From the NCBI RefSeq assembly GCF_000234665.1, contig NC_018330.1, positions 548,434-612,433 on the forward strand: a stretch of DNA of 64,000 nucleotides, written 5' to 3'. A program made the translations under genes and the position numbers. The notes beneath the pieces are model-generated. The model worked only from the letters and a program-made list of their open reading frames with translations, did not search any database and was not told where the DNA came from. This DNA comes from Leishmania mexicana MHOM/GT/2001/U1103. Lineage: Eukaryota > Euglenozoa > Kinetoplastea > Trypanosomatida > Trypanosomatidae. Below, in pieces: positions 43,176 through 47,484 of the stretch; within the stretch, counting starts at the first letter, position 1; every line of letters begins with the position of its first letter.

Positions 43176-44406
43176 TGTGGAAGTGGGAACCAAACGCGGT
43201 CGCCCGAATGGGCAGGTGGTATTGCTGGGTATTCGCACCTCTTTAACCCACCACACCCGACGCAAGCTGACACACACAACACCGATGGAACTTGCATCGA
43301 TTCCTCACCTCTTGTCCCCATTGCCGCACATACTCAGTCTTCCCTCGCACAGGAAGGGGGAAACGGGGAGCACGACTCTTATTTATGTAAACTACATCTC
43401 TCTTGAGTCTTCGGCTCTTTTTTTTTCGTTTGTTGTGAGCAGTCGAAATAAGGGAGGGGTTGTCGGTTAGCGGGTGCGCACTCTCCTTTTCGCTGTTTGC
43501 ATGCTCTCCGTTCTCCTGTGTGTAGACACAGATTTCACGCCAAGCAGCAAAAAGACAAGAAGATGGTACTTTAGTGCCACACTAGGGTGTGTGTGTGGGG
43601 GGGGGCAAAAACTCTAAAGCGCTGGGACCGTCGATGTGCGGCTCTTTTGTTTGGTGAGGAGAGGGGGAGGGGCAGCTCACACACCTGAGACAGCAAAGGT
43701 TGGACGCGTGCTCGAGGCCCATTTTTCAATGGCCTCCAATGATGCTCGACGAGCCGTGCGCACCTGTGCTTGCGTATGAGCCGGGGGTATTCTGTTCGGA
43801 GCGCCCATGCGATGTTAAAACCTTGTCGGTTGCTGCACCGTGATGGCTTCTGCCTAGTGGTGCTCATAGTACTCACCGAGCGTCGTAGCTCATACTGGTA
43901 ACTTGAGCAGGTTTCTTGCCCTGCTGCCCAAACCCACTTGCTCTTCGGTGTTGGTTCTGCATCTCCGTATCGCTGCTTCCTCGACGAGGCTCATGAAGGG
44001 TTTGCTGTCGCCTTCGGCTGTCTCTCTCACTTTCGCATCTCCTCTCTCTCACACATCCCTTTCCTCGGCTTTCTGCCCCTTTTCGTTTGTCGACTGTGTC
44101 CCTTTCTCGTGCGCCGTGCGCGCGGTCTCATTGAAACCAACAACAGCAAAAGCTGGTCAAATCGCGTTTCTCATTTTGAACCTCCGTGTTTGTTCCTGCT
44201 GTTCACATTGGTTGCGGATAATTTCGATTGCGCTCCTCTCTCCGCTTCCTTCACTCTACTTCTTCGTCCTTGCCTTCCTTATGGACTAGAGTTCAGAAGG
44301 CAAGGAGAGGGGTCTTTCTTTTTTCTTTTTTTTCAAGGAAAGGAAGCAACAAACTATTTCGCCAAGAAGCAGAAGCGAACGAAAAACATCCGGTCCAGTT
44401 TTGAGG
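43176..44406. other. Intergenic region
   Basis: 1.2-kb spacer with a T run near 43422 and a G run near 43600, and a strong T/C tract before the kinase gene. No coding frame. Confidence 0.55.
44336..44337 (+). promoter_or_regulatory. Putative spliced-leader acceptor for the kinase gene
   Basis: The tract ggtctttcttttttcttttt at 44311-44330, extended to 44334, ends in caag, with AG at 44336-44337. The ATG is 69 bases downstream. Confidence 0.6.
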
Positions 44407-47400
44407 ATGCTAGCGCATCCTATCCTCGCCTCCGAGGATGACGAGGAGTATGTAATTCGTGTTATCTTCTGCCTGCCAGCCCTCCTCGATGCATATTTCG
44501 ACGCGGTCGAGACGATTTGTGCGGAGCCGTCCCCGCCGCCAGAGTCCAAAACTCGCGCAGATATTCTGCACCTCACGATTCAGCAGCGCTTGCTTGTCCT
44601 GGGACGCGTGCCTCCCAGCACATTTCGACATTTCGACGAAGTCTCCGGGACGGAGACGGAGGACAAGGAGCTTCCTAAACTCATTGATCAGCTGCGTCAT
44701 GTCTTCCTCGAGAACAAGGTGGACATTGGCCCACAGGCACTCTTGTGGCGCAAGCAGTCTCTGTCCCTGGCGAGGGAGTGCTCAGATCATATGAATCGCT
44801 GCCGCGTTCGCTTTTCCTTGAGCAGGAAGGTGCGGCGCGAGCTGGTCGCGTTCGGTTCGGCCCCGTACGCATTCAGCATGATTTCCTTCGGTCTCATAGT
44901 CATCTTTGCTTGCAGTGCTCTAGTCGTCATACCAGCCGTGCAGGCTCCACTAGCGAGTGGGCTGGCCGTCGGCTGTGTCGCTTGCGTGCTTCTTGTCGTC
45001 TCTGCATCCCTCGTCTCCTTCAACTGCTTTACTGCGGTGCGCTCCTTGCACATATTGTACTCGCAGCTATTCCACGAGTACTTGATCGCCGGCGGGTCAC
45101 CGTCTGATATCTTGCTGGGTTCTTTGCTAGAGCCGTCCTTCAAACAACGGGGAAAGGACGGGCCGCGGGACAGTGGGGCGAAGCGGGTAGAGATGGGTCG
45201 TGAGACCAAGACGGGCTACTACAGCATCCCTTACGGCGGCGAGAACAGAATTGGGTACATCGAGGGCAAGCAGCTGAATGCACAGGTGGTGATGATCGCC
45301 TTCGATAGCAACTACCAGATTACGTGGTGGAATAACGCAGCGGAGGTGATGACGGGGTTCTTGCAAGACGGGTGCATTGGCAAGCCGCTGAACGAGCTTG
45401 TCCAGTGCTTCAACGGCGAGGATGTGTGCTCCCTTATCAAGCACACGCGTCGCGGAAATCTGCTTAAGATCAAGCTCCGCTCCCTCACCGCAGCCCCAAC
45501 AACGCTCAGCACCGTGGTGGCACCAATTCTGAACTGCGACAGCAAGCCCATCGGTAATGTGCTGATCTGCGCTAACTCGCTCGACAACTTGAGAGAGTAC
45601 CGCATTTATATGCACAACTATCAAGTGAGCGAAACAATCGGTGCTTTGTCCTTCTTATCGGAGCGCTCATCTCTGTCGCACGAAGATTCCACTCTCGTCA
45701 ACTCCCTGAGACGCTTTGTGAAGAACGGTCTGGCAAACCATGTGGAGACCCTCGCGCGGGAGATGGAGTCTGACTGGGACTGGACGAGCGTGGAGCAGCT
45801 GCTGGGTCGCGCCTTGGGTCAGCGGATCGGGCTGCATGAGGTGATTGTGGACCCGCTCTTCCCGCCCACGCTATGCGTCAACCCAGACGTGGCCAAGACA
45901 TTTGGGTCCGTTGTCGGGCTAGCCAATGGCCGCTGCACGGTCACACTACAGATGCTGAACTTGACAGGCAACGTCTTTTCGCTGGCTGTGACCGTGCTGC
46001 TGGGCCCCAAGTGCCGGCCGTGGGATCAGGCGCAGCTGGAGCAGCAGCTGGAGCAGCTGTTACGCAGCACGGCAGGAAGCGTGTACCTTCTCGAGGAGCG
46101 CGTGGTGCTGCATTTTCCATGTCAAGTGGCACCGATTTTGGACGACGGCGACGAGGGGAATGCCAACCCTAACTCCGACCAGGCGCTGCAGATCACGCAG
46201 GCCAGGGCCATCATCAACTGCACGGTGAACGTGGTGACCGCCATCACGAACATGGTGGATCAGCACAACTTGTCCCTTATCTTGCTCAAGACCATGTTTG
46301 TCTCTCTCGCCAGCGTGCGCGAGCGCAGCGACCTCGAGAAGCGCTTGTCTGCTCGCCCGTGTGATGTAGATGTAATTATTTGCGACAGCGAGTGGCTCAG
46401 CTCGTCCCGTGATCTTCTCATGAACAACGACCACGGCGCCATGGTGATCCCGCTGATCGATGCACAGATGCCAGTTCCAGCCAATGTGCAGCATGCGATT
46501 CACATGCCGCTTGTGCGACGGGACGTGCAGCAGCTCATCTTGGAGGTTGGCAAGGCGGTGTCCATGAAGAAGAACGCCATCTCCGCCCGCGAGGAGCGTG
46601 AGCGAATCCTCACGCTGCGCCAGGACTCCCCATGGACGCGTGGCAAGCTGCTCGGGCGTGGGTCGTACGGTGCCGTGTACGAGGCGACTAGCGATCTCAC
46701 CGGCGGCAAGATGGCGGTGAAGATGTTCTACTTCTCGCAGAACGTCGAGTCGTCGATTAGCACGTTGCTGAACGAGATCTCTATCATGTGCAGTCTGAAC
46801 CACCCCAACATTGTGCACTACTTCCACTGCGAGCGCAAGGAGAACAACGTAAGCTTGTTCATGGAGCTGTGCGAGGCCTCTCTAACAGACATCATTGTAG
46901 GACGGCGGCAAAAGCCGGCTCACCTGTCCGTCGTGCAGATCATTCGGCAAGTCCTGACTGCCATTGCTTACTTGCATAGTCGAGGCATCGCCCATCGAGA
47001 TGTCAAACCCCAGAACATTCTTCTAAAGGGCGAGACGGTGAAGTTGACCGATTTTGGTACTGCAATTCAGGGGAGTGCGGGCAAAGAGGTGCGGGGCACA
47101 TTCCGGTACATGGCCCCGGAGGTCTACAAGGGTGACCCCCACTCACTGAGCTGCGACATATGGTCTATCGGCTGCCTTGTGTGCGAGCTGTTTGCGTGCC
47201 CGACCCCCTTCATGGCGAATGCATCGCTGCTGGGTGAGATGACATCCACCGTGGACTACCTGACGATGGTGCCGCAAAACGCGGTCTTGATCGACTTTTT
47301 GGAGAAGTGCTTCCAACTTGATCCTGAGCGGCGCTGGGGAGCTGGTGATCTTCTCATGCATCCTCTGGTTTCCGGCAATGCCGCAGCATCATCTTTGGTG

Positions 47401-47484
47401 AAGCTGGAGACGATTTTTGACGCGAAGCATAGCAATCCTCTAGACCCGTCCGGCCAATCCGTGTTTTCCTTACGGTCTGCATAA
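44407..47484 (+). CDS. STE11-like protein kinase with membrane segments, PAS, and degenerate histidine-kinase/receiver-like domains
   Basis: 1025 residues. Two hydrophobic segments lie at about 155-205. A PAS domain follows at about 290-395 (VVMIAFDSNYQITWWNNAAE). The next region resembles a DHp helix pair (405-475) and then an HATPase fold (480-575, from IVDPLFPPTLCVNP to AGSVYLLEERVVLHFPCQ) without N or G boxes. A receiver-like segment is at about 610-720, with VDVIICDSEW (Asp660), a GAMVIPLID strand and MPLVRRDV where KP would be expected. The C-terminal Ser/Thr kinase (about 742-1000) is complete: GRGSYGAVY at 750-758, Lys772, Glu790, HRDVKPQN with Asp865, DFG Asp882, and GTFRYMAPEV. Its MEKK-like sequence suggests a MAPKKK. 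Inference: a membrane-tied sensor kinase. Confidence 0.88.
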   Translation: MLAHPILASEDDEEYVIRVIFCLPALLDAYFDAVETICAEPSPPPESKTRADILHLTIQQRLLVLGRVPPSTFRHFDEVSGTETEDKELPKLIDQLRHVFLENKVDIGPQALLWRKQSLSLARECSDHMNRCRVRFSLSRKVRRELVAFGSAPYAFSMISFGLIVIFACSALVVIPAVQAPLASGLAVGCVACVLLVVSASLVSFNCFTAVRSLHILYSQLFHEYLIAGGSPSDILLGSLLEPSFKQRGKDGPRDSGAKRVEMGRETKTGYYSIPYGGENRIGYIEGKQLNAQVVMIAFDSNYQITWWNNAAEVMTGFLQDGCIGKPLNELVQCFNGEDVCSLIKHTRRGNLLKIKLRSLTAAPTTLSTVVAPILNCDSKPIGNVLICANSLDNLREYRIYMHNYQVSETIGALSFLSERSSLSHEDSTLVNSLRRFVKNGLANHVETLAREMESDWDWTSVEQLLGRALGQRIGLHEVIVDPLFPPTLCVNPDVAKTFGSVVGLANGRCTVTLQMLNLTGNVFSLAVTVLLGPKCRPWDQAQLEQQLEQLLRSTAGSVYLLEERVVLHFPCQVAPILDDGDEGNANPNSDQALQITQARAIINCTVNVVTAITNMVDQHNLSLILLKTMFVSLASVRERSDLEKRLSARPCDVDVIICDSEWLSSSRDLLMNNDHGAMVIPLIDAQMPVPANVQHAIHMPLVRRDVQQLILEVGKAVSMKKNAISAREERERILTLRQDSPWTRGKLLGRGSYGAVYEATSDLTGGKMAVKMFYFSQNVESSISTLLNEISIMCSLNHPNIVHYFHCERKENNVSLFMELCEASLTDIIVGRRQKPAHLSVVQIIRQVLTAIAYLHSRGIAHRDVKPQNILLKGETVKLTDFGTAIQGSAGKEVRGTFRYMAPEVYKGDPHSLSCDIWSIGCLVCELFACPTPFMANASLLGEMTSTVDYLTMVPQNAVLIDFLEKCFQLDPERRWGAGDLLMHPLVSGNAAASSLVKLETIFDAKHSNPLDPSGQSVFSLRSA

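What the first reader, a model, noticed from the sequence alone, without database searches (positions are those of the whole stretch)
44407..47484. Kinase that looks like a decayed hybrid histidine kinase fused to a STE11-type Ser/Thr kinase
Seen: order is two hydrophobic segments, PAS, a helix-pair region, a beta/alpha region ending LEERVVLHFPCQ, a receiver-like segment with Asp660 in a CDSEW strand, then a complete Ser/Thr kinase. The middle order (PAS, DHp, HATPase, REC) is that of a hybrid histidine kinase, but the N and G boxes, the phospho-His context and the receiver Lys are missing. Inference: the two-component core has lost catalysis and is kept as a sensor or scaffold that feeds a MAPKKK-type kinase. 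Trypanosomatids are generally thought to lack histidine kinases, so a fossil one in this setting would be notable.
Basis: partly seen in the sequence, partly recalled or inferred. Interest (0 to 1): 0.75.

Follow-up and report, generated by a model that had tools for sequence, protein, structure and literature searches.

The report
Decayed sensor kinase fused to MAPKKK-like kinase
This Leishmania gene encodes the already published "dual ancestor kinase", whose middle part is predicted to fold like a bacterial-type hybrid sensor kinase that has lost its working residues and likely now steers an attached ordinary protein kinase; three relatives in the same genome appear to share the layout, and one of them keeps every key residue of the sensor's receiver switch.

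The parts
44407..47484 (+). DAK orthologue, 1025 aa plus stop
   Evidence: 24 homologues over its non-kinase part
44313..44334 (+). 22-base pyrimidine tract, likely trans-splicing signal (inferred)
   Evidence: no ATG between it and 44407
44407..44847 (+). N-terminal helical region, residues 1-147
44875..45015 (+). two predicted membrane helices, residues 157-175 and 185-203, joined by a short loop
   Evidence: Kyte-Doolittle scan; published membrane-helix predictions for T. brucei DAK (PMC8519429)
45226..45576 (+). PAS domain, residues 274-390
   Evidence: Pfam PF00989 above cut-off; model strands
45577..45771 (+). DHp-like helices, residues 391-455, no conserved phospho-His
   Evidence: His in at most 12 of 25 rows in any column of 395-440
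45778..46131 (+). CA (HATPase)-like domain, residues 458-575, no N/G1/G2 boxes and no ATP lid
   Evidence: model topology; Foldseek hits EnvZ, DesK, HprS, MprB; motif scan; direct profile match to bacterial CA not significant
46219..46512 (+). pseudo-receiver, residues 605-702
46243..46248 (+). residues I613-T614 at the acidic-pair position, no acid in 25 of 25 rows
46384..46386 (+). Asp660, phospho-acceptor position, 25 of 25 rows
46504..46509 (+). M700-P701 at the Lys-Pro position; never Lys at 700, Pro in 25 of 25
46516..46626 (+). long helix 704-740 joining receiver to kinase
   Evidence: 704-734
46636..47367 (+). Ser/Thr protein kinase domain, residues 744-987
   Evidence: Pfam PF00069 198 bits; catalytic residues

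Best explanation
The gene is the Leishmania orthologue of DAK, a protein with two predicted membrane helices in which a PAS domain and a core predicted to fold as DHp, CA and receiver, without the residues for ATP use or canonical phosphotransfer, lead into a Ser/Thr kinase with all catalytic residues, which the core likely switches by change of shape and pairing rather than by a phosphorelay. Shown by sequence: the loss of the His, N, G1 and G2 boxes, ATP lid, acidic pair and Lys, and the retention of Asp660 and of the kinase active site. Predicted: the folds, their order and the membrane hairpin. Inferred: a cytosolic or membrane-borne cue acts on PAS, the DHp helices pair two molecules, the pseudo-receiver and its long last helix (704-740) pass the change to the kinase, and the kinase acts as a MAPKKK-like enzyme. 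DAK is one end of a family: three paralogues in this genome appear to carry the cassette with graded decay, so one ancestral hybrid-kinase/Ser-Thr-kinase fusion likely duplicated and lost its phosphotransfer stepwise.
Against: No Pfam HATPase_c or Response_reg match on the DAK pieces. Direct hhalign of DAK CA to bacterial CA is not significant (9 columns, E 0.11), nor is the whole DAK core (E 0.37); DAK2 CA to bacterial CA is not either (9 of 40 shuffles as good), so CA rests on fold and order. DAK receiver against DAK2 receiver alone is weak (E 0.003; score 23.9 against 20.2 for the reversed query). Whole-core superposition is poor (ShkA rmsd 18.8 A), and a few unrelated proteins stand among the 28 hits: domains match one by one, not as one arrangement. 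Full-length pTM is 0.34. Asp660 kept in 25 of 25 could mean that it still has a chemical role. No data on activity, pairing, ligand or substrate of this protein. 'MAPKKK-like' is not shown: nearest solved kinases are PAK and PLK4.
Confidence: 0.7

Rival explanations
1. DAK's receiver still takes a phosphoryl group on Asp660 from a donor in trans, such as acetyl phosphate or an unrecognised phosphotransfer protein, and so switches the kinase.
For: Asp660 is kept in 25 of 25 rows, as is Pro701; the 2021 paper stresses that the Asp remains.
Against: Both acidic-pair positions lack an acid and the Lys position lacks Lys in 25 of 25 rows, residues that canonical receivers need for Mg2+ and phosphoryl binding (established knowledge). 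No Hpt or HisKA match in the genome.
Confidence: 0.12
2. The cassette came to kinetoplastids from bacteria as one piece (the 2021 paper's reading) rather than from a eukaryotic hybrid histidine kinase of discoban ancestors.
For: [quoted passage not shown]
Against: Relatives in Discoba are rich in histidine-kinase and response-regulator domains (Acrasis 60 and 83, Naegleria 28 and 33; passages of PMC11589745), so descent with decay is at least as simple. I built no tree of the core.
Confidence: 0.3
3. The middle region only resembles these folds; it is an unrelated alpha/beta module.
For: Curated profiles find nothing in the DAK pieces, and direct profile comparison of DAK with bacterial kinases is weak.
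Against: Fold searches, domain order, the bridge through DAK2, and NCBIfam TorS matches across CA end and receiver of DAK2 members, E down to 4e-4, below cut-off.
Confidence: 0.04

Closest known systems
DAK, dual ancestor kinase, Tb927.9.3120 and orthologues (Jensen et al. 2021, PMC8519429)
   Same: Membrane helices, PAS, DHp, CA, receiver, Ser/Thr kinase; phospho-His lost, receiver Asp kept; L. major and Bodo orthologues named there. The window gene is inferred to be this gene's copy.
   Different: I add that the acidic pair, Lys, N/G boxes and ATP lid are gone across 25 rows, and that likely paralogues exist. In the parts I read, the paper gives this cassette to DAK alone among ten membrane kinases.
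Hybrid histidine kinases (ShkA, TorS, GacS)
   Same: DHp-CA-REC order and predicted folds.
   Different: No phospho-His, N, G1 or G2 box, acidic pair or Lys in DAK; a Ser/Thr kinase is attached.
Yeast Sln1-Ypd1-Ssk1-Ssk2/22 (recalled)
   Same: A receiver governs a MAPKKK-type kinase.
   Different: There receiver and kinase are separate proteins and phosphotransfer is active; here they are one chain and DAK's receiver is degenerate.
Pseudo-receivers such as CikA PsR
   Same: Receiver fold without full chemistry; CikA PsR is itself a Foldseek hit (5jyu, E 1.8e-3).
   Different: DAK keeps the acceptor Asp and sits directly before a Ser/Thr kinase.

Membership tests
Catalytically competent hybrid histidine kinase | phospho-accepting His in DHp helix 1 | tested here: not met
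   no column of residues 395-440 has His in more than 12 of 25 rows
Catalytically competent hybrid histidine kinase | N, G1, G2 boxes and ATP lid in CA | tested here: not met
   no D.G.G, G.G.G or N..[NH]A in residues 440-577 of any of 25 rows; lid 6-11 residues in 24 of 25, 64 in P0014
Catalytically competent hybrid histidine kinase | receiver acidic pair, Asp, Lys | tested here: not met
   acid 0/25 at 613 and 614, Asp 25/25 at 660, Lys 0/25 at 700
Hybrid histidine kinase by fold and order | DHp, CA and receiver folds in that order after PAS | tested here: met
   predicted model only, and no curated profile agrees
DAK orthologue group | same order and full-length similarity, with a T. brucei member | tested here: met
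   24 homologues, 19 of them at 100% cover of the searched part, incl. T. brucei gambiense at 39%; identity of P0022 with Tb927.9.3120 is inferred
Active Ser/Thr protein kinase | VAIK Lys, C-helix Glu, HRD Asp, DFG Asp | tested here: met
   25, 25, 24, 24 of 25, the misses being gaps; activity not tested
STE11 (MAPKKK) family | kinase domain groups with STE11 | tested here: inconclusive
   nearest solved kinases are PAK and PLK4; my tree has only kinases of this genome and DAK/DAK2 rows
Phosphorelay system | partner HisKA and Hpt proteins in the genome | tested here: not met
   0 matches for PF00512 and PF01627 at E <= 10; diverged partners cannot be excluded

The most novel reading that the evidence does not exclude
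Leishmania carries a family of receiver-controlled MAPKKK-like kinases born from one hybrid-histidine-kinase/Ser-Thr-kinase fusion, and in at least one member (the C15 giant with two cyclic-nucleotide domains, PAS and a complete Glu-Asp / Asp / Thr / Lys receiver site) the receiver is still a working phospho-switch wired in cis to the kinase, in an organism held to lack two-component signalling; DAK is the decayed end of that series.
Probability: 0.3. Interest if true: 0.85.

Novelty: new member of a known kind. Interest (0 to 1): 0.52.

Why it matters
The window gene shows how a sensor kinase core can outlive its own chemistry as a likely controller of an ordinary kinase, but that was published. 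What changes the picture is the family: several kinases of one parasite genome appear to carry the same cassette at different stages of decay, with a receiver site that runs from complete to dead. That makes it directly testable whether two-component chemistry survives in kinetoplastids, where a 2015 survey already counted one response-regulator protein each in L. major and L. donovani, apart from HK proteins and without naming it in the passages I read (PMC4558063), and it offers a natural series for how receivers turn into pseudo-receivers.

Tried and rejected
Pfam and NCBIfam scans of DAK, and Pfam scans of its pieces: no histidine-kinase core or receiver profile. Foldseek with the full-length model: the 50 listed hits are all protein-kinase entries, so the core was predicted alone. 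Profile search with all 25 DAK rows: 119 proteins, 11 of them DAK orthologues (the search scores a capped candidate list); my DAK PAS, DHp-CA and receiver profiles found nothing convincing in the others (best E 0.26). P0150, the bacterial hybrid kinase found by DAK2 at E 1.8e-11, owes its score to six PAS repeats; its receiver piece alone scores -2.9 bits, so I do not use that E-value as evidence.

Receiver-like stretches that I saw by eye before the kinases on C2 (L016) and C20:3013724 (L017): L016 fails the profile test (17 of 40 shuffles as good, against both merged profiles); L017 passes against one merged profile over 38 columns (0 of 40) and fails against the other (4 of 40). I count neither. 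Receiver-only searches of this genome are thin: the C15 receiver finds itself and the C20 giant (E 0.002), the DAK2 receiver finds itself only. A guess that LmxM.36.1530 is DAK2 was wrong: it is listed as a NEK kinase. That LmxM.26.1730 (lysosome and flagellum, PMC7902614) is this gene is recalled plus rough position, not verified; the paper on T. brucei reports ER instead.

Full report
WHAT THE FINDING IS. The plus-strand ORF 44407-47484 encodes 1025 aa. The window lies in a 32-Mb genome, contig C26:548434-612433, Leishmania by its nearest relatives. A protein search over residues 1-730 gave 24 homologues at E <= 10: Leishmania, Porcisia, Angomonas, Strigomonas, Phytomonas, several Trypanosoma including T. 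brucei gambiense, and unnamed entries; 19 of the 24 cover the whole searched part. P0023 lacks the N-terminal part and P0014 a stretch of the kinase; all 25 rows including the window stayed in alignment A1.

ALREADY PUBLISHED. Jensen et al. 2021 (PMC8519429; I read the outline, passages and section 15) describe Tb927.9.3120 as having a PAS region and co-linear DHp, catalytic and receiver regions by HHpred, followed by a protein kinase domain; they name it dual ancestor kinase (DAK), list T. cruzi, L. major (Q4Q920) and Bodo orthologues, state that the His is mutated and the receiver Asp present, place the tagged protein in the ER, and report no knock-down phenotype. That our gene is the Leishmania copy follows from the shared architecture and the T. 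brucei hit; I did not match accession numbers. In this open-access library the name appears in that paper alone.

TESTS OF THE CHEMISTRY. In the 25 rows: Asp660 25/25, Asp655 25/25, Pro701 25/25; position 613 is I, V or L in all and 614 never an acid; position 700 is never Lys; His reaches at most 12 of 25 in any column of the helix pair. In residues 440-577 no row has D.G.G, G.G.G or N..[NH]A; the stretch where the ATP lid belongs has 6-11 residues in 24 rows and 64 in P0014, against 40 in the bacterial reference P0150. The Ser/Thr kinase keeps its Lys and Glu in 25/25 and both Asp in 24/25 with one gap. So the 2021 remark that the acceptor Asp remains needs a rider: its partners are gone.

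DAK IS LIKELY NOT ALONE. tblastn of DAK in its own genome gave 45 places at E <= 1e-10; besides the gene itself, 43 lie within residues 721-996 (the kinase and its edge), and one reaches back into the core (C20:2943513, residues 568-995). Profiles of the DAK PAS and DHp-CA parts also matched, weakly but in order, the 980-aa ORF with the nearest other kinase (C20:1396644; PAS E 3e-4, DHp-CA 2e-4, whole 4e-7 in a small ORF set). Reading the stretches before the kinases suggested the cassette in three paralogues. (a) 'DAK2' (L015:1117-4059); 16 homologues under various names, several 'mitogen activated kinase-like', one labelled CheY-like/PAS by its source, one from T. grayi; 15 of the 16 show two or more hydrophobic windows like DAK, the exception being the short P0148. 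(b) A 3995-aa open frame on C20 (L012/L013) with cNMP and PAS matches above cut-off, and CA-like and receiver-like parts. (c) A 2704-aa open frame on C15 (L014) with two cNMP stretches, PAS and kinase, fitting the description of LmjF15.1200 in the 2005 kinome paper (PMC1266030, passages), which reports its PAS and cNMP domains and does not hold the term 'response regulator'.

PROFILE TESTS WITH CONTROLS. Reference: 79 bacterial hybrid kinases (P0150 and 78). hhalign for single pairs, with columns of the query shuffled as control: DAK2 receiver vs bacterial receivers E 2.7e-7, score 43.3 against a shuffled maximum of 23.2 (0 of 40); DAK2 core vs bacterial core E 2.9e-5 over 219 columns (0 of 24); DAK core vs DAK2 core E 5.9e-7 over 274 columns (0 of 24); DAK CA vs DAK2 CA E 3e-6 (0 of 40); C15 receiver vs bacterial E 2.5e-4 (0 of 40); C20-giant receiver E 1.9e-4 over 52 columns (0 of 40); the two giants' receivers with each other E 1.3e-6 (0 of 40). 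DAK receiver with bacterial receivers directly: E 0.004 (0 of 40, weak); with DAK2 receiver: E 0.003 (0 of 40, but the reversed query scores 20.2 against 23.9); with DAK2, the giants and 80 bacterial rows merged: E 8e-6 (0 of 40).

Results against or mixed. DAK CA vs bacterial CA (E 0.11, 9 columns) and whole DAK core vs bacterial core (E 0.37); C15 receiver vs the second bacterial receiver set (E 0.056), vs DAK2 (0.016) and vs DAK (0.29); C20-giant receiver vs DAK2 (0.039); C15 CA vs bacterial CA (0.11), vs DAK CA (0.058) and vs C20-giant CA (0.15) (all, no shuffles); DAK2 CA vs bacterial CA (9 of 40 shuffles as good). PDB sequence search with seven DAK2 receivers: 4 hits at E <= 10, all receivers or histidine kinases, best E 0.0086; the L015 receiver alone gave PhoP third at E 1 behind two unrelated chains, and the C15 receiver alone gave a receiver second at E 0.65. 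Pfam on ten pieces: no receiver or HATPase_c above cut-off; HATPase_c E 0.066 on C15 CA, and receiver-like FleQ E 0.06 and OKR_DC_1_N 0.05 on L015. NCBIfam: TorS over CA end and receiver in L015 (0.005) and P0145 (4e-4), and over the receiver in P0149 (0.0036); all below cut-off, none in P0141 or L014 at E <= 0.1.

GRADED DECAY. Receiver residues (acid, acid / acceptor / Thr-Ser / Lys): C15 giant E, D / D / T / K, by its alignment to bacterial receivers, one sequence; DAK2 E 17/17, K or R / D 17/17 / T 17/17 / K 17/17; C20 giant D, N / D / A-S / no Lys (by eye); DAK none, none / D 25/25 / none conserved / none. DAK2 also has a His in the helix-pair region in 16 of 17 rows. The C15 CA region keeps GDGIP and lacks the N-box Asn, and the C20 giant has DDGPTIP (by eye). 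A PAS-to-receiver query from C15, which runs some 57 residues on towards the kinase, finds five places in this genome at E <= 0.001: itself, the C20 giant twice, DAK2 (receiver and kinase edge), and DAK by the kinase edge only.

ONE CLADE OF KINASES. A tree of 31 kinase domains (10 rows of the cassette family, 2 suspected, and the 19 best-scoring of the other 39 places) sets the 10 and the 2 apart from all 19 others at 98/94; it is unrooted, and three rows have long branches, one of them a suspect. The tree uses no core columns, so the cassette was likely present before this clade split. The two suspects (C2, C20:3013724) have no firmly supported receiver, so loss or extreme decay there is possible.

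CONTEXT. HisKA 0 matches, Hpt 0, Response_reg 1 at E 0.18 below cut-off. HATPase_c has 6 matches; of five whose frames I scanned, one is a BCKDH-kinase-type protein, one a gyrase-B-type protein, one a mismatch-repair protein, one (L005) matches BCKDK/PDK structures best, and one gave no family at E <= 1e-5; the sixth was not scanned. A 2015 survey reports HK domains in L. major, L. donovani, L. infantum and T. brucei, and one RR protein each in L. major and L. donovani, HK and RR in separate proteins (PMC4558063, passages). The Euglena genome paper mentions an orthogroup with a receiver domain, with PAS in many orthologues of other lineages (PMC6366073, passage); I did not check whether it is related. 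Gene deletion of LmxM.15.1200, probably the C15 gene by chromosome and domains, lost fitness in establishing sand-fly infection (PMC7618733, passage). In this library I found no paper that reports these paralogues' receivers: searches; supplements were not readable.

HOW IT LIKELY WORKS. DAK: membrane hairpin with almost no outer loop, PAS as the likely sensor, DHp-like helices for likely pairing, a dead CA and pseudo-receiver as relays, and a long helix into the kinase. All steps after the sequence facts are inference. The family view suggests that a receiver-on-kinase design was first driven by phosphotransfer and that DAK now uses its shape alone.

Noticed in passing
   Followed up: partly
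L015:1117-4059 (C20): DAK2: conserved Glu, Asp, Thr, Lys receiver residues in 17 of 17 rows and a His in the helix pair in 16 of 17. Probably LdBPK_363870, a balancing-selection candidate in L. donovani (PMC8717319), by name and rough position only.
   Followed up: partly
L016 (C2:226000-232500) and L017 (C20:3005000-3014900): Kinases that group inside the DAK clade and have receiver-like stretches to the eye; profile tests fail for L016 and are mixed for L017, where the acceptor Asp would be Glu.
   Followed up: partly
window 45373-45375: Cys323 in the PAS domain is conserved in at least 90% of the 25 rows; possibly a redox or ligand contact.
   Followed up: no
window 44407-44445: The first 13 residues (consensus MLPHPILASEDDE) are strongly conserved and precede any known domain.
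   Followed up: no
L005:55-1878 (C33): A 608-aa ORF with a C-terminal HATPase_c domain that matches BCKDK/PDK structures best but shows no N-terminal BCDHK family match at E <= 1e-5.
   Followed up: partly
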